Below, in pieces: positions 1 through 19,714 of a stretch of 64,000 nucleotides of DNA (its first letter is position 1; each line of letters starts with the position of its first letter). The stretch covers positions 1 to 64,000 of the forward strand of contig CAMEVC010000006.1 of the NCBI GenBank assembly GCA_945939115.1. The letters run 5' to 3'. The translations under genes and the position numbers were made by a program. The stretch is from an uncultured Eubacterium sp. (GTDB taxonomy: Bacteria; Bacillota; Clostridia; Lachnospirales; Lachnospiraceae). The notes under the pieces are model-generated. The model searched no databases, was not told the DNA's origin, and saw only the letters and a list, made by a program, of their open reading frames with translations.

Positions 1-23
1 AGCTGTTCATTAGTAAACGCCAT
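1..23 (-). CDS. ThiF/MoeB/HesA-like adenylyltransferase (N-terminal fragment)
   Basis: Only the first seven codons are inside the window; they read M-A-F-T-N-E-Q-L, the usual opening of HesA/MoeB/ThiF E1-like enzymes. The ATG overlaps the TAA of the ThiS-like gene (TAATG), so the two are translationally coupled. Family knowledge: such enzymes adenylate the C-terminal glycine of ThiS/MoaD-type carriers so that sulfur can be attached. The assignment rests on the start motif and on the neighbour, because the ATP-binding and zinc motifs lie outside the window. Confidence 0.6.
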
Positions 24-232
24 TAGTATGCTCCTCCTCCCATGAAATATAAGAATTCTACTGCATCTCCATCTTTTAATTTCGTTGTCTCGAATTCATC
101 TCTTTCCACAAATTCATCATTGAGAGTAACTGTAACATACTCAGCATTCTCAACATTCTCCTTAACTATAAGCTGTGCAATAGTAAGCTCCTCATCATAA
201 TTCTTCTTGTTTCCTGCAACTGTAATTGTCAT
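23..232 (-). CDS. ThiS/MoaD-like sulfur carrier protein with extended C-terminus
   Basis: A 69-residue beta-grasp protein. The start has a GGAGG site seven bases upstream. The C-terminus reads M-G-G-G-A-Y (residues 64-69). In the ThiS/MoaD family the diglycine is normally the very end and becomes a thiocarboxylate; here one or two residues follow it, so a peptidase would have to trim the tail first. Known precedents are CysO (trimmed by Mec+) and HcyS of Wolinella (trimmed by a JAMM protease). Lying between a thioredoxin-like gene and a ThiF-like gene, in an operon with sulfite reductase and MetY, it is probably a sulfide donor for homocysteine synthesis rather than for thiamine. Confidence 0.85.
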   Translation of the reverse strand: MTITVAGNKKNYDEELTIAQLIVKENVENAEYVTVTLNDEFVERDEFETTKLKDGDAVEFLYFMGGGAY

Positions 233-252
233 TTTACTTCCTCCCTCATCAA

Positions 253-573
253 TTAATTAATTTTCCCTTCAAACAATCCAAGAAGTGCATCTAAAGTCGT
301 CTTTCCTGTAAGTCTGCCAATCTCCTCTCCCTTGTCAAAGGCGATAAATGTAGGTGCTGACAGCACTTCATACTCTGATGCAAGCGCATCATCAAAATTA
401 ACATTTACCTTATAGACATTAAGCTTTCCTTCATAATCATCCTCAATGTCTCCAACTATTCCCGCCATCATCTTGCATGGTATGCAGGAATCCGAATAGA
501 AATCCACTAAAACCGGGAGTTCTGACTTAAGCACCAACTCCTCAAAGTTCTCTGCGTTAGCTCTTACCGCCAT
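253..573 (-). CDS. Thioredoxin-like protein with CIPC active site
   Basis: A 106-residue thioredoxin fold. The redox motif is C30-I-P-C33 instead of the CGPC of housekeeping thioredoxins, and the cis-proline loop S-A-P-T-F is present (P74). The start chosen is the ATG with GAGGTGACA just upstream; a longer reading frame has no ribosome site. It sits between tusA-like and thiS-like genes in the sulfur operon, so it may keep TusA, sulfite reductase or the carrier reduced, or act as their disulfide reductase. The altered dipeptide usually shifts redox potential. General thioredoxin function in electron supply is the alternative. Confidence 0.85.
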   Translation of the reverse strand: MAVRANAENFEELVLKSELPVLVDFYSDSCIPCKMMAGIVGDIEDDYEGKLNVYKVNVNFDDALASEYEVLSAPTFIAFDKGEEIGRLTGKTTLDALLGLFEGKIN

Positions 574-611
574 TGTCACCTCTTTCCGCGCGGATATATA
601 TCCACACAATT

Positions 612-866
612 TTATTCGTCCTCGTCTTCTACCTTCCTTACAATGAGTACATAGGTTCCGTCCTCATTGGCAGTAAGCTTTAATATCTGGTGTCCCTCTT
701 CTTTTATGCTTCTTGGAACATTCTGGACAGGCTCTCCGTCATTCATTCTTATAGCCAGTATCTGCCCGTCATCTAACTCTTCCAGTGCCACCTTTGCCTT
801 AACAAATGTTGTTGGGCAGACCACATCAGTAATATCCACAGTATCATCAATCTCAAAATCAGCCAT
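612..866 (-). CDS. TusA-like sulfurtransferase
   Basis: An 84-residue SirA/TusA-fold protein. The single cysteine C17 lies in the V-V-C-P-T-T motif, matching the CPxP active-site motif except for the final proline. TusA proteins accept persulfide sulfur on this cysteine and pass it to a partner. The start overlaps the end of the sulfite reductase gene by 8 bases, indicating coupling, and the thioredoxin-like gene follows closely. In this operon it could shuttle sulfur from sulfite reduction to the ThiS-like carrier. The acidic tail (E-D-E-D-E) is not family-typical. Confidence 0.85.
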   Translation of the reverse strand: MADFEIDDTVDITDVVCPTTFVKAKVALEELDDGQILAIRMNDGEPVQNVPRSIKEEGHQILKLTANEDGTYVLIVRKVEDEDE

Positions 867-1725
867 TGTATGCCTCCTTTATCTTCTTATAGAATTCCTC
901 TCTTCCAACTCTGTCCAGCGTGAACTTAAATCTTTCACTCGGCTTTGCATTATCTTCAAAGAACTGGATTGCTGCATCGCACACTCTGAAAAGCTGTTCC
1001 TCACTTCTTATCAGAGGAAGCGGTGTCTCACCTTTACATATAGCATTACCAAATGTTCCTGCAAATGAAATGATATATGCCGAAGGAGCATCCCACGCAT
1101 CTGTAGGACAGGACTTAGCGCATCTTCCGCAGTAATTACATTTATCATAATTCACTCTGACCTTGCCATTCTCCATCGTGATGGCCTCTGTCCGGCATGC
1201 CTTCTCGCACACACCGCAGCCAATACATTTGCCCTCAATCCACTTAACATCAGCAGCGCCCTTGATACCAACATCATTCTCCTCTGCCTTAAGACAGTTA
1301 TTCTGGCATCCGGTAACACCGAACTTGAATTTGTGTGGAAGCTCCCTTCCAAAATATCTTTCATCAAGCTTTACTGCAATATCATATGTGTCAATATTGC
1401 CGCTTGGACAGATTGTGTTGCCCTGACAGGCTGTGACTGTACGGACTCTTGGACCGCACACCCCGGGTCTGCATCCTCCCTCAGCCAGCTTATCCTTAAC
1501 AGCATCAATATCCTTAAGCTTAATAAATGGAATCTCAACGCCCTGACGGGATGTAAGATGAACATGTCCGTCTCCATATTCCTTTGCAACCTCAGCAATC
1601 TTTATAAGATTCTCTGCTGTAAGATACCCTCCTACAACTGCAAGACGAAGTGAAAAATTATTCTTCTGCTTCTGTCTCATAAATCCGCCCTTCTTAAGTG
1701 TTGCATAATCAACTTTCTCTGCCAT
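859..1725 (-). CDS. Siroheme sulfite reductase fused to 2x[4Fe-4S] ferredoxin (AsrC-like)
   Basis: A 288-residue single-chain reductase. Residues 1-160 form a sulfite/nitrite reductase half repeat with the siroheme-[4Fe-4S] ligands C100-x5-C106 and C140-x3-C144. Residues 165-210 are a bacterial ferredoxin domain with two CxxCxxCxxxC sets (C167/170/173/177 and C196/199/202/206). The architecture resembles AsrC of anaerobic sulfite reductase and short assimilatory reductases of anaerobes. It would reduce sulfite to sulfide using reduced ferredoxin. A GGAG site lies seven bases before the ATG. Its place directly after metY indicates assimilation, not respiration; asrA and asrB are absent. Confidence 0.88.
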   Translation of the reverse strand: MAEKVDYATLKKGGFMRQKQKNNFSLRLAVVGGYLTAENLIKIAEVAKEYGDGHVHLTSRQGVEIPFIKLKDIDAVKDKLAEGGCRPGVCGPRVRTVTACQGNTICPSGNIDTYDIAVKLDERYFGRELPHKFKFGVTGCQNNCLKAEENDVGIKGAADVKWIEGKCIGCGVCEKACRTEAITMENGKVRVNYDKCNYCGRCAKSCPTDAWDAPSAYIISFAGTFGNAICKGETPLPLIRSEEQLFRVCDAAIQFFEDNAKPSERFKFTLDRVGREEFYKKIKEAYNG

Positions 1726-1766
1726 AACATTTCTCCTTATCCTGTATATATTTATCTTATATATAT

Positions 1767-2996
1767 CTATGTTGAGGACTCTATTGCTGCTCTGAAATCT
1801 TCTTTCAAATCCTCAATATCCTCTATCCCCACGCTGACACGTATCAGGTCATCATACACTCCTGAGGCTTCCCTTTCCTCTTCACTTAGGTGGAGGGCAA
1901 TTGTGGAGGCCGGATGGATTACCAGCGTTTTAGTATCGCCAATATTAGAAACAATAAGAGGTATCTTTAATGAATTAATTATCTTAAATGCTCTCTGTCT
2001 GCTTCCAACCCGGAATGTTATTATTGCCCCGTAGCCTTTACAAAACTGTTTTCTTGCCACCTCATAGTATGGACTGGATTCAAGCCCCGGATAATTAACG
2101 GTTATTCCGTTCAATGTATCAAGAAACTCTGCAAGTTCCAGAGCATTGCGGCAATGTCTCTCCATTCTCAGCCCCAGTGTCTCAAGACCGATATTGTTAA
2201 GAAAAGCATTCTGTGGAGCAATACATCCACCCGTATTTCTGAACAAACCATTACGAAGCTTAATTATATATGCCATAGGTCCGAATTTCAAATACGGCTT
2301 AAGCCCCGGATATTTCTCTGCATTAAATTTAAATTTGCCGCTGTATGTAAGAATACCGCTTATTGCGCTGCTGCTTCCATTAATGTACTTGGAAGAAGAA
2401 TTCACGACAACATCCGCTCCTAATGTAATAGGCTGTGCCAGGTACGGTGTTGATACAGTGTTATCAACTACCATAAGCACACCATGTTTATGTGCCACAC
2501 CGGCAACCGCTTCTATATCAGTCACATCAAGCTTAGGATTACCTATTGTCTCGGCAAATACCACTCTCGTTCTGTCTGTTATCAGTTCTTCGAAACATTC
2601 CGGTCTGTTATCTTTAACGTATTTAACCGTTATACCAAAGCTTTTAAAATCTTCAAATAATTCAACTGTACCGCCATACAACCCGCAGGACGCAACAATT
2701 TCATCCCCCTGCACTACAACATTTGCAATTGAATTAAATATAGCCGCCATTCCTGAGGAACACGCAACACTGGAAAATCCCTTTTCGAGTTTAGTCACTC
2801 TTTTTTCAAATGCCTCCGTTGTAGGATTATTAATTCTTGTATATGAAAAACCCATTGCCCTGTTGTCAAATATCTCACCCAGCTCCTCAGCGCTCTCATG
2901 CTTAAATGCACTGGATTGATATATAGGAACAAGTGTCGCCCCATTGGGATATTGGTCTACCCCCTCATGAAGCAATGCTGTATTAAATCCACTCAT
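1767..2996 (-). CDS. metY: O-acetylhomoserine sulfhydrylase / Cys-Met PLP enzyme (MetY-like)
   Basis: A 409-residue member of the Cys/Met metabolism PLP family. The cofactor lysine is in S-S-K-Y (about K203) and the pyridine-binding aspartate in V-V-D-N-T (about D178). The start is the ATG eight bases after AAGGAGG, not the longer in-frame ATG at 3056. The family replaces the acetyl or succinyl group of an activated homoserine with sulfide, giving homocysteine. It is the first gene of the sulfur operon. Cystathionine gamma-synthase or methionine gamma-lyase activity is possible on sequence alone; the adjacent sulfite reductase and sulfur carrier favour sulfhydrylation. Confidence 0.85.
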   Translation of the reverse strand: MSGFNTALLHEGVDQYPNGATLVPIYQSSAFKHESAEELGEIFDNRAMGFSYTRINNPTTEAFEKRVTKLEKGFSSVACSSGMAAIFNSIANVVVQGDEIVASCGLYGGTVELFEDFKSFGITVKYVKDNRPECFEELITDRTRVVFAETIGNPKLDVTDIEAVAGVAHKHGVLMVVDNTVSTPYLAQPITLGADVVVNSSSKYINGSSSAISGILTYSGKFKFNAEKYPGLKPYLKFGPMAYIIKLRNGLFRNTGGCIAPQNAFLNNIGLETLGLRMERHCRNALELAEFLDTLNGITVNYPGLESSPYYEVARKQFCKGYGAIITFRVGSRQRAFKIINSLKIPLIVSNIGDTKTLVIHPASTIALHLSEEEREASGVYDDLIRVSVGIEDIEDLKEDFRAAIESST

Positions 2997-3135
2997 ACAT
3001 CCTCCTTGTTTTACCTGCCCTTCAATAATTACCATTAAGATAGGGTAAGCATTCATGCATATGATGAACTGTTCATATAGTAAACCCTTTTACCTACTAT
3101 GTCAATATGTTATTGGGATTTTTTGTAAAATATAT

Positions 3136-3194: not shown

Positions 3195-3626
3195 TTAAAT
3201 AATATAACTGTCTATACCTGAGTTAGAATTTACAAGGTCTGCAATTGTAATTCCTTCAAAATAATCATTGACAAGCTTCTCGAAATTCTCCCACATATGC
3301 AGGGTCTTACACTCTGCAATCTTAGGGCATCTGTTCGGCTTCTTCTCAAGACAGGCAACAGGAGCAAGCGAGCCCTCCGTTACAAGAAGAACACTTAATA
3401 CAGTGTATTCTTCAGGATTGCGTGCCAGCTTGTAACCGCCTCCCTTTCCCCTTAAGGAAATCAGGAACTCATTCTTACTCAGCGTAGCAACAATAGCCTC
3501 CAGATATTTCTCAGATATATCCTGTCTTGTTGCGATATCCATAAGTGGAATAAATTCGCCTGTGTTGTGTTCAGCCAGGTCAATCATAACCCTCAATGCG
3601 TATCTTCCCTTTGTCGAAATCTTCAT
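3195..3626 (-). CDS. Rrf2-family regulator with candidate Fe-S cysteines (IscR/CymR-like)
   Basis: A 143-residue winged-helix regulator opening with M-K-I-S-T-K-G-R-Y-A, characteristic of Rrf2 proteins. Three cysteines (C92, C100, C106) sit where IscR carries its [2Fe-2S] ligands (C92, C98, C104), so it may sense iron-sulfur or cysteine status. The start follows a GAGG site; the longer frame upstream lacks one. It precedes the metY operon on the same strand with a terminator between. In Firmicutes CymR, a relative, represses sulfur assimilation, so control of the metY-thiS operon is a reasonable inference. Confidence 0.88.
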   Translation of the reverse strand: MKISTKGRYALRVMIDLAEHNTGEFIPLMDIATRQDISEKYLEAIVATLSKNEFLISLRGKGGGYKLARNPEEYTVLSVLLVTEGSLAPVACLEKKPNRCPKIAECKTLHMWENFEKLVNDYFEGITIADLVNSNSGIDSYII

Positions 3627-8469: not shown

Positions 8470-8575
8470 AGTATGTAGCAGCGGGATGCGAAATGTGTAC
8501 CGCAAGTTCTACCCTTTCGTCCGAATGGCAACTCCCTGTCCACCCGGCACTTAACGCACACAAATCTACTCTGCT
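8470..8575 (-). promoter_or_regulatory. Tetrahydrofolate (THF) riboswitch aptamer
   Basis: Read on the minus strand, the element opens with AGAGTAG, then GCGTTAAGTGCCGGG, GGGAGTTGCC, GGACGAAAGGG, GCGGTAC, GCATCCCGCTGCTACAT. These are the conserved segments of the THF-I class in the correct order. The end-closing helix is GTAG/CTAC. It lies between a good promoter and folT, the commonest position of this class. I recognised it from consensus knowledge; no covariance search was run. Confidence 0.9.
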
Positions 8576-19608: not shown

Positions 19609-19714
19609 CTTTACCTCCATAAAAATGGCGGGGTAAATCCCCGCCAGCCGGTGGACCAGGACCTTTCGGTCAGCCCAAATATTAATGCACTTCGTGCAAA
19701 AGATTCATATTTGT
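19609..19714 (-). promoter_or_regulatory. Structured 5' leader with terminator in front of the lipoprotein gene
   Basis: A leader of about 105 bases holds three hairpins on the minus strand: TGCAC-GAA-GTGCA, GACC-GAAA-GGTC and GGCGGGG-ATTTA-CCCCGCC (19627-19645). The last is followed by ATTTTT and then the GGAGG ribosome site. This is the layout of an attenuator or riboswitch. It matches no class I know. Confidence 0.5.

What the first reader, a model, noticed from the sequence alone, without database searches (positions are those of the whole stretch)
1..2996. Probable protein-thiocarboxylate route to homocysteine in a Lachnospiraceae-like genome
Seen: MetY-type sulfhydrylase, sulfite reductase-ferredoxin, TusA-like, thioredoxin-like, ThiS-like carrier and the start of a ThiF/MoeB-like E1, close-packed on one strand. 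Known: in Wolinella succinogenes a ThiS-like carrier (HcyS), a ThiF-like enzyme and a JAMM protease form a protein thiocarboxylate that feeds MetY. Inference: this operon reduces sulfite and loads the sulfur on a carrier protein instead of using free sulfide. The TusA and thioredoxin partners are additions to the described scheme.
Basis: partly seen in the sequence, partly recalled or inferred. Interest (0 to 1): 0.78.

Follow-up and report, generated by a model that had tools for sequence, protein, structure and literature searches.

The report
Sulfite-to-homocysteine operon with protein-bound sulfur
A gut bacterium carries a conserved seven-gene operon that probably turns sulfite into the methionine precursor homocysteine by carrying the sulfur on a small ubiquitin-like protein; the pathway type is known from Wolinella, but this version often includes a thioredoxin whose role is unknown.

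Summary
The window's first 55 bases overlap another contig of the same genome, where the operon continues with the rest of the ThiF/E1 gene and a JAMM metalloprotease. The operon is MetY-SiR-TusA-Trx-ThiS-ThiF-JAMM. Of 80 named relatives chosen by TusA, 56 have exactly this order. All 79 ThiS-like carriers found there are capped after Gly-Gly, whereas 47 of 51 thiamine ThiS proteins read in the order end bare. The operon MetY groups with the Wolinella MetY (support 100/100) and lacks a loop present in the ten canonical MetY rows compared. This is the known HcyS/HcyF/HcyD-MetY system. TusA is not an addition: Iyer et al. 2006 say these neighbourhoods always contain it. Less expected: a thioredoxin in 66 of 80 loci; no CysD/CysH-family or ATP-sulfurylase match in this 97%-complete genome, so sulfite is the likely entry point; and four thiamine ThiS proteins that are also capped, all in JAMM-bearing genomes. 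Chemistry was not tested. That sulfur never passes through free sulfide is inference, and the genome also has two canonical MetYs. Known in kind, with two testable extras.

The parts
1767..2996 (-). MetY, O-acetylhomoserine sulfhydrylase of the Wolinella (protein-thiocarboxylate) type, 409 aa; lacks the PxxSYHG-like loop of canonical MetY
   Evidence: Pfam 391 bits; TIGR01326 448 bits, below its 495 cut-off; tree with 3ri6 100/100; loop absent
859..1725 (-). small siroheme sulfite reductase with inserted 2x[4Fe-4S] ferredoxin domain, 288 aa; siroheme/4Fe-4S cysteines C100, C106, C140, C144 (roles assigned from the known C-x5-C...C-x3-C pattern)
   Evidence: closest solved relative by sequence is the C-terminal half of F420-dependent sulfite reductase (7np8, 141 bits); these cysteines in 77 or 78 of 78 rows
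612..866 (-). TusA/SirA-like sulfur carrier, 84 aa, reactive Cys17 in DVVCPTTF; overlaps the end of the SiR gene by 8 bases
   Evidence: Pfam TusA 69.6 bits; Cys17 in 81 of 81 rows
253..573 (-). thioredoxin-like protein, 106 aa, active site CIPC, no Trp before it
   Evidence: Pfam 76 bits; found in 66 of 80 relatives: CVPC 39, CIPC 26, CGPC 1; in the SiR-picked set CVAC, CIAC and CITC also occur
23..232 (-). ThiS-like (HcyS-type) sulfur carrier, 69 aa, ends FMGGG-AY: Gly-Gly tail masked by two residues
   Evidence: TIGR01683 68 bits, match ends at Gly67; 79 of 79 carriers found in relatives are capped
1..23 (-). first codons of the ThiF/MoeB-like E1 (HcyF type); rest on contig C32:33-839 (268 aa), followed by the JAMM protease (HcyD type) at C32:976-1392 (138 aa)
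   Evidence: 55-base contig overlap; PF00899 299 bits; PF14464 77.7 bits; ORFs
3077..3105 (-). predicted promoter of the operon: -35 TTGACA (3105-3100), 17-base spacer, -10 TACTAT (3082-3077)
   Evidence: sequence reading, coordinates checked; relatives carry CCTATTGA..TATAAT-like sequence upstream of MetY
3092..3110 (-). predicted operator: imperfect dyad ACATA-N9-TAGGT overlapping the -35 box
   Evidence: CCTATTGA, the commonest 8-mer, is in 35 of 70 upstream regions against 0.2 expected in mononucleotide shuffles; the window has the variant CATATTGA
3195..3626 (-). Rrf2-family regulator (IscR/CymR-like), possible regulator of the operon
   Evidence: Pfam Rrf2 125 bits; an Rrf2-like gene lies within 2.5 kb upstream of MetY in 28 of 68 relatives, weak opposite-strand hits included

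Best explanation
This is a Lachnospiraceae version of the HcyS/HcyF/HcyD-MetY pathway: assimilation of sulfite into homocysteine through a protein thiocarboxylate. The small sulfite reductase makes sulfide-level sulfur. The JAMM protease trims the -Ala-Tyr cap off the ThiS-like carrier to expose Gly-Gly, and the E1 adenylates that end with ATP. Sulfur is loaded on the acyl-adenylate, most likely through the TusA cysteine persulfide, to give the thiocarboxylate. MetY adds it to O-acetylhomoserine, and JAMM releases homocysteine and recycles the carrier. I infer that the thioredoxin reduces the acyl-persulfide/disulfide formed when TusA passes its sulfur on. Shown here: genes, order, cap, MetY clade, conservation. 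Established in Wolinella (Krishnamoorthy and Begley 2011; seen only as citations in other papers, details recalled): thiocarboxylate formation and use by MetY. Inferred: TusA persulfide as donor, role of thioredoxin, no free sulfide.
For: JAMM and E1 genes complete the operon. Gene content within 4 kb in 80 relatives picked by TusA: ThiS 79, ThiF 77, SiR 77, JAMM 74, MetY 70, Trx 66; 56 of 80 in identical order. Five of the six loci without JAMM end close by. Of 20 loci picked by SiR, 14 carry TusA-ThiS-ThiF-JAMM, 11 of these with MetY and 7 with Trx. Carrier capped in 79 of 79, against 4 of 51 thiamine ThiS. Caps on thiamine ThiS were seen only in JAMM genomes: 4 of 12 against 0 of 39, which links JAMM to caps. 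MetY: 22 operon MetYs plus Wolinella 3ri6 against 10 canonical rows (9 distinct), 100/100; PxxSYHG-like loop absent in 23 of 23 and present in 10 of 10. Motifs are intact: JAMM HSHP in 74 of 74, TusA Cys17 in 81 of 81, E1 crossover-loop Cys187 in 76 of 78 with 2 gaps.
Against: No biochemistry. The genome has two canonical MetY enzymes (C30 610 bits, C3 567 bits to TIGR01326), a second sulfite/nitrite reductase (C26) and a CysK-like gene (C27), so this operon need not be the only route to homocysteine. Ten of 80 loci have no MetY within 4 kb; in five of them (L078, L079, L118, L123, L137) several kb upstream of SiR were read and no MetY was seen. One locus (L141) has SiR-TusA-ThiS without ThiF or JAMM although 5 kb follow. 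Fourteen of 80 lack the thioredoxin. In the MetY tree 3ri6 sits on a long branch (1.72), and few canonical MetYs were included. The Wolinella paper itself could not be read. No search for the O-acetylhomoserine-making enzyme was made.
Confidence: 0.85

Rival explanations
1. The sulfite reductase releases free bisulfide, which attacks the carrier adenylate directly; TusA and thioredoxin are accessory (sulfur buffering, redox repair). Same end product, different loading step.
For: This is the loading step in the Wolinella scheme as I recall it. Thioredoxin is missing in 14 of 80 loci, and its presence changes at least 6 times on the ThiF+SiR+TusA tree.
Against: TusA is in every locus of the TusA-picked set by construction, but also in 14 of 14 carrier-bearing loci found through SiR. 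SiR is the detected gene directly before TusA in 77 of 78 loci that hold both, and the 2006 survey found SirA/TusA 'always'.
Confidence: 0.4
2. MetY here works with free sulfide, and the ThiS-ThiF-JAMM module makes a thiocarboxylate for another product (cysteine or thiamine).
For: Thiamine ThiS in the same genome is capped and its thi cluster lacks thiF, so an E1/JAMM pair may also serve thiamine. A CysK-like gene is within the fetched stretch in 10 of 80 relatives, directly upstream of MetY in five. Five carrier loci have no MetY near.
Against: The operon MetY is in the Wolinella clade and lacks the canonical loop. Seventy of 80 carrier operons contain it. I saw no thiG or cysK among the ORFs of the window's operon.
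Confidence: 0.1
3. A ubiquitin-like protein-modification system, with JAMM as deconjugase.
For: JAMM's best curated family is desampylase, at 71 bits against a cut-off of 130. Carrier and E1 are ubiquitin-system relatives.
Against: No gene that looks like an E2 among the operon ORFs (read by eye, no E2 family search); usual company of SiR and MetY, and of AprA-like in 49 and CysD-like in 43 of 80 loci.
Confidence: 0.04

Closest known systems
[quoted passage not shown] seen only as citations in passages of PMC5764234, PMC6225789 and PMC11796402; gene names and details recalled)
   Same: Capped ThiS-like carrier, E1, JAMM protease, sulfite reductase and MetY together; the MetYs form one clade and share the missing loop.
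   Different: Here a small SiR with built-in ferredoxin clusters and a thioredoxin with CIPC; cap Ala-Tyr (relatives: Gln, Ala-Arg, Cys, Arg and others) instead of the single Ala that I recall for Wolinella; no CysD/CysH-family or ATP-sulfurylase match in this genome. The Wolinella locus itself was not compared.
Gene-neighbourhood type 4e of Iyer, Burroughs and Aravind 2006 (PMC1779556; outline, section 12 and passages read)
   Same: ThiS/MoaD-like, JAB, E1 without rhodanese domain, SirA always present, sulfite reductase, O-acetylhomoserine sulfhydrylase; Wolinella and clostridia listed.
   Different: Thioredoxin is not mentioned in the main text (0 occurrences); PAPS reductase/CysD family and ATP-sulfurylase have no match in this genome.
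Structure 2k5p/3cwi, named thiamine-biosynthesis protein ThiS (from Geobacter metallireducens, source organism recalled)
   Same: Best solved relative of the carrier, 77.7 bits; its sequence continues after FMGGG. Geobacter metallireducens is on the 4e list.
   Different: Named as thiamine biosynthesis; probably an HcyS-type carrier (inference). Residues after Gly-Gly-Gly include a likely expression tag, so its native end is uncertain.
CysO/Mec+/CysM of Mycobacterium tuberculosis (recalled; the cysteine route is mentioned in a passage of PMC6225789)
   Same: Thiocarboxylated ubiquitin-like carrier plus JAMM protease plus a PLP enzyme.
   Different: The product there is cysteine through CysM; here the PLP enzyme is MetY.

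Membership tests
HcyS/HcyF/HcyD-MetY pathway | ThiS-like carrier with residue(s) after Gly-Gly | tested here: met
   Window carrier ends GGG-AY; 79 of 79 carriers in relatives capped
HcyS/HcyF/HcyD-MetY pathway | ThiF/MoeB-like E1 next to the carrier | tested here: met
   C32:33-839, PF00899 299 bits
HcyS/HcyF/HcyD-MetY pathway | JAMM metalloprotease in the cluster with intact motif | tested here: met
   C32:976-1392, PF14464 77.7 bits, HSHPETPSRPSEED
HcyS/HcyF/HcyD-MetY pathway | MetY of the Wolinella type | tested here: met
   Clade with 3ri6 100/100, loop absent; caveat: long 3ri6 branch, only 10 canonical rows
HcyS/HcyF/HcyD-MetY pathway | Sulfite reductase in the cluster | tested here: met
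   859-1725; whether it is of the same type as the Wolinella enzyme was not compared
HcyS/HcyF/HcyD-MetY pathway | Sulfate-to-sulfite genes in the cluster (as recalled for Wolinella) | tested here: not met
   PF01507 and PF01747 have 0 matches in the genome; near the operon in many relatives (AprA-like in 49, CysD-like in 43 of 80). Not a step of the thiocarboxylate chemistry itself
HcyS/HcyF/HcyD-MetY pathway | Thiocarboxylate made and used by MetY | not testable with these tools
   Needs mass spectrometry and enzyme assays
Neighbourhood type 4e (Iyer et al. 2006) | SirA/TusA always present, E1 without rhodanese domain | tested here: met
   TusA 612-866; E1 of 268 aa, whose matches cover it with E1/adenylyltransferase models
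Thiamine ThiS system | thiG/thiH neighbours and bare Gly-Gly end | tested here: not met
   No thiG seen in the operon; capped. A separate ThiS gene lies on C23 beside thiG and a thiH-like gene
CysO/Mec+/CysM | Cysteine synthase (CysM) in the cluster | tested here: not met
   The PLP enzyme in the operon is MetY; a CysK-like gene is elsewhere (C27)

The most novel reading that the evidence does not exclude
A fully covalent sulfur relay from sulfite to amino acid: the small sulfite reductase hands its sulfur to the TusA cysteine as a persulfide, TusA loads the carrier adenylate, and the thioredoxin resolves the acyl disulfide, so that toxic sulfide is never released. In several genomes of the order an E1/JAMM pair of this kind has also captured the thiamine carrier ThiS, which has gained a C-terminal cap (and in three of four cases its thi cluster has no thiF), so that methionine and thiamine sulfur may share one maturation system.
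Probability: 0.25. Interest if true: 0.7.

Novelty: new member of a known kind. Interest (0 to 1): 0.45.

Why it matters
The protein-thiocarboxylate route to homocysteine was shown in Wolinella. Here a TusA-anchored scan of 84,980 species genomes finds 565 relatives of this TusA, and nearly all of the best 80, including Blautia, Roseburia and Ruminococcus bromii records, carry the operon. It may therefore be a common way for gut anaerobes to make methionine from sulfate or sulfite, one that gene-by-gene family names (ThiS, MoeB, desampylase, MetY) do not reveal. It makes two questions testable: whether TusA plus thioredoxin let cells assimilate sulfite without releasing sulfide, and whether a JAMM protease made for methionine also matures the thiamine carrier.

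Tried and rejected
Rejected: (1) TusA as a novel addition: already described in 2006. (2) A SiR cysteine (C249) that seemed to go with thioredoxin (47 of 64 rows with Trx, 2 of 11 without, Fisher p 0.0008): on the tree it goes the same way in 0 of 6 independent pairs, so it reflects ancestry. (3) Thioredoxin as partner of APS reductase: weak association with the AprA-like gene (44 of 66 against 5 of 14, p 0.04, not corrected for ancestry), but 22 Trx loci show no AprA-like gene in the fetched stretch (some are cut by contig ends) and this genome has no CysD/CysH-family or ATP-sulfurylase match, so it is unlikely to be its only role. (4) The cap as an absolute mark of the methionine carrier: 4 of 51 thiamine ThiS are capped too. 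(5) Riboswitch control of the operon: no Rfam match at gathering threshold near it; the window's two hits are a THF riboswitch and a DUF3800-XI RNA. (6) SiR as exclusive to this pathway: 6 of 20 SiR-picked loci have no carrier genes.

Literature: (HcyD, HcyF and similar names) listed nothing relevant; (thiocarboxylate/methionine/Clostridia/sulfite reductase/ThiS; ThiS C-terminal extension/JAMM/ThiF; sulfite reductase/TusA/thioredoxin/MetY) gave listings (20 of 75, 9 of 9, 8 of 10 shown) in which I saw no paper on this operon or on capped thiamine ThiS. Of these only passages of PMC11354881 were read. The word ThiS also matches 'this' there, so these searches were weak. One search (TusA/ThiF/JAMM/sulfite reductase/homocysteine) gave 0 papers. 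Subscription journals are not held, so this does not show that nothing is in print.

Limits of counts: the 80 loci are the best of 565 by TusA similarity, hence close kin. At least two loci appear in both sets (L044/L075 and L050/L132: equal contig lengths). Of the 79 carrier tails, two are 15 and 21 residues long, one is 5 long and one ends GGRR. L052 has its JAMM split over two frames. The thiamine count covers 53 of 54 genomes with ThiG (G191, a fragment, left out; one of two ThiG places in G169 read), minus two in which no ThiS was found (G067, G128). 'JAMM genome' means a PF14464 match of E 1.2e-20 or better; with the family's own cut-off the count is 4 of 15 against 0 of 36. An early note of mine gives 3 of 10 against 0 of 17 on a smaller set; it is superseded. 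AprA-, CysD-, CysN-, CysK-, ThiG- and ThiH-like genes were found by similarity to one example each, whose Pfam families were checked afterwards; the AprA example matches FAD-binding flavoprotein families only, so that name is by resemblance.


Full report
What is there. The window starts at base 1 of contig C6 of a 2.46 Mb, 48-contig, 97%-complete genome. On the minus strand lie MetY (1767-2996), a small sulfite reductase (859-1725), TusA (612-866), a thioredoxin (253-573), a ThiS-like carrier (23-232) and the first codons of a ThiF-like E1 (1-23). Neighbouring genes overlap or are 20-41 bases apart; the carrier's stop and the E1's start overlap (TAATG). The window's first 55 bases equal the first 55 of contig C32 in reverse. 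C32 carries the complete E1 (33-839; PF00899 299 bits) and, after 136 bases, a JAMM protein (976-1392; PF14464 77.7 bits).

Host. One sampled 'same family' genome, G173, has a contig of the same length (140,514) and operon position as the Blautia schinkii record NZ_JAAWUO010000011, so the window's family is very probably Lachnospiraceae (inference).

How conserved. Two selections were read. First, the sulfite reductase was sought in 196 genomes of the order (63 with E 1e-30 or better), and the surroundings of the 20 most similar intact ones were fetched. Fourteen of 20 have TusA, ThiS, ThiF and JAMM beside it, 11 of these also MetY and 7 thioredoxin. The other six have no carrier genes: three lie beside CysD- and CysN-like genes (L047, L062, L063), two beside ABC-transporter-like genes (L048, L049) and one beside genes that look unrelated (L058) (read by eye; some examples checked). 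Second, a TusA profile in 84,980 species genomes gave 565 relatives, best 80 kept. In these, ThiS 79, ThiF 77, SiR 77, JAMM 74, MetY 70 and Trx 66 of 80 lie within 4 kb; 56 of 80 have the order MetY-SiR-TusA-Trx-ThiS-ThiF-JAMM. Some absences are contig ends: five of six for JAMM. Others are real: L141 has no ThiF or JAMM, and five loci have no MetY upstream.

Marks of the thiocarboxylate pathway. (a) The carrier ends FMGGG-Ala-Tyr. All 79 carriers of the second set and all 15 rows of the first (window included) have residues after Gly-Gly, in the second set most often Gln 27, Ala-Arg 16, Cys 9, Arg 7. As a control, 53 thiG loci of the same order were read and ThiS was found in 51: 47 end bare, 4 are capped. 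(b) JAMM keeps HSHP in 74 of 74. (c) MetY: 22 operon MetYs (a choice from those at hand) and Wolinella MetY (3ri6) form one side of a branch with support 100/100, against 10 canonical rows, 9 distinct, that include this genome's own two. The operon enzymes and 3ri6 lack a PxxSYHG-like segment that all 10 canonical rows have. This shared gap is a character apart from the residues compared, although other Cys/Met enzymes such as methionine gamma-lyase may also lack the segment (recalled). The long branch of 3ri6 and the small canonical set are caveats. (d) E1 keeps both CxxC pairs, Cys187 in the crossover loop and Cys264 in the tail (76 or 77 of 78 rows, the rest gaps); TusA Cys17 is in 81 of 81; SiR keeps its siroheme and ferredoxin cysteines (77 or 78 of 78).

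Where the sulfur comes from. In many relatives AprA-like (49 of 80), CysD-like (43) and CysN-like (38) genes lie within the fetched stretch, usually downstream. This genome has no match to the CysD/CysH family nor to ATP-sulfurylase, while the controls ring in 14 and 5 of 14 genomes. The assembly is 97% complete, so absence is likely but not certain. The likely entry is therefore sulfite itself, from an unknown source.

How it probably works. From Wolinella (recalled; the paper is not held): JAMM removes the cap, E1 adenylates the carrier, sulfide-level sulfur gives the thiocarboxylate, MetY transfers it to O-acetylhomoserine, and JAMM releases homocysteine. What TusA does is inference: the 2006 survey predicted a rhodanese-like role and reported SirA/TusA as constant in these neighbourhoods. 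A TusA persulfide attacking the adenylate would leave an acyl disulfide (the survey's Background mentions an acyl-persulfide link between carrier and E1, passage), which must be reduced; a thioredoxin fits that step. In the 80-locus set its active site is CVPC in 39, CIPC in 26 and CGPC in 1 of 66; of the eight proteins aligned from the first set (window included), four have CVAC, CIAC or CITC, and none has the usual Trp before it. It is absent from 14 of 80 loci and changes at least 6 times on a tree of E1, SiR and TusA, so it helps rather than defines the system.

Against uniqueness. The genome has two canonical MetYs (C30, C3), another sulfite/nitrite reductase (C26) and a CysK-like gene (C27). 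The operon may work under sulfide or cysteine shortage (inference). An Rrf2 regulator precedes it (3195-3626), and relatives have an Rrf2-like gene within 2.5 kb upstream of MetY in 28 of 68, counting weak hits on the other strand. A dyad, ACMTA-N9-TAKGT, overlaps the -35 box: CCTATTGA occurs in 35 of 70 upstream regions against 0.2 expected in mononucleotide shuffles. The 8-mer was picked because it was the commonest, and the regions are related, so this is not a test. The window itself has the variant CATATTGA. Which regulator binds it is not shown.

A side finding that bears on mechanism. The thiamine ThiS of this genome (C23, beside thiG and a thiH-like gene) is also capped (GGG-QF), as in G173 (GGG-SC), G175 (GGG-CI) and G035 (GGG-C). 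All four genomes have a strong JAMM match: 4 of 12 JAMM genomes against 0 of 39 others (hypergeometric p 0.002, or 0.005 with the family cut-off, 4 of 15 against 0 of 36; not corrected for ancestry; four genera in three families). In three of the four the thi cluster shows no thiF, which 39 of 47 bare-ThiS clusters have; the fourth, G035, has one. Eight bare-ThiS clusters also lack thiF, so loss of thiF does not require a cap. This genome has a second ThiF-JAMM pair on C35. G173 and G175 have a single JAMM match, in the methionine operon. G035 has a ThiF-JAMM pair but no SiR match of the kind sought here. So in some genomes of the order a JAMM/E1 pair seems to serve thiamine too.

Verdict. A real, well-conserved operon of a known kind: Wolinella-type protein-thiocarboxylate homocysteine synthesis, neighbourhood type 4e of 2006. 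Not met in the sources I could search: the recurrent thioredoxin, the apparently sulfite-only form in this genome, and capped thiamine carriers in JAMM genomes.

Noticed in passing
G000 contig C23 (L160:5510-5758); G173 L044:14079-14282; G175 L192:4550-4867; G035 L229: Thiamine ThiS proteins beside thiG that carry residues after Gly-Gly, seen only in genomes with a strong JAMM match (4 of 12 against 0 of 39); in three of four the thi cluster shows no thiF.
   Followed up: partly
G000 contig C35 (L011:8787-10148): A second ThiF-JAMM pair with no ThiS or TusA recognised nearby; its E1 has Ser where the operon E1 has the crossover-loop Cys187 and ends before the Cys264 tail. Possible partner of the capped thiamine ThiS.
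   Followed up: partly
PDB 2k5p/3cwi: The best solved relative of the methionine-pathway carrier is named thiamine ThiS; it shares FMGGG and continues after it. Probably an HcyS-type carrier.
   Followed up: no
L069, L070, L071, L085, L143: In some relatives a CysK-like gene lies directly upstream of the operon MetY, so cysteine synthesis may be tied to the same operon.
   Followed up: no
L052:9527-9938: JAMM gene split over two reading frames in one relative (frameshift or assembly error).
   Followed up: no
L141:4470-5850: A locus labelled Planctomycetaceae MAG has SiR-TusA-ThiS without ThiF or JAMM in the 5 kb that follow.
   Followed up: no
window 8477-8575 (-): THF riboswitch (84.9 bits) upstream of a membrane protein that looks like a folate transporter component, with a folylpolyglutamate synthase-like gene following (gene names by eye).
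   Followed up: no
window 19630-19677 (-): DUF3800-XI RNA match (61.4 bits, gathering 37.8) among ABC transporter-like genes (gene names by eye).
   Followed up: no
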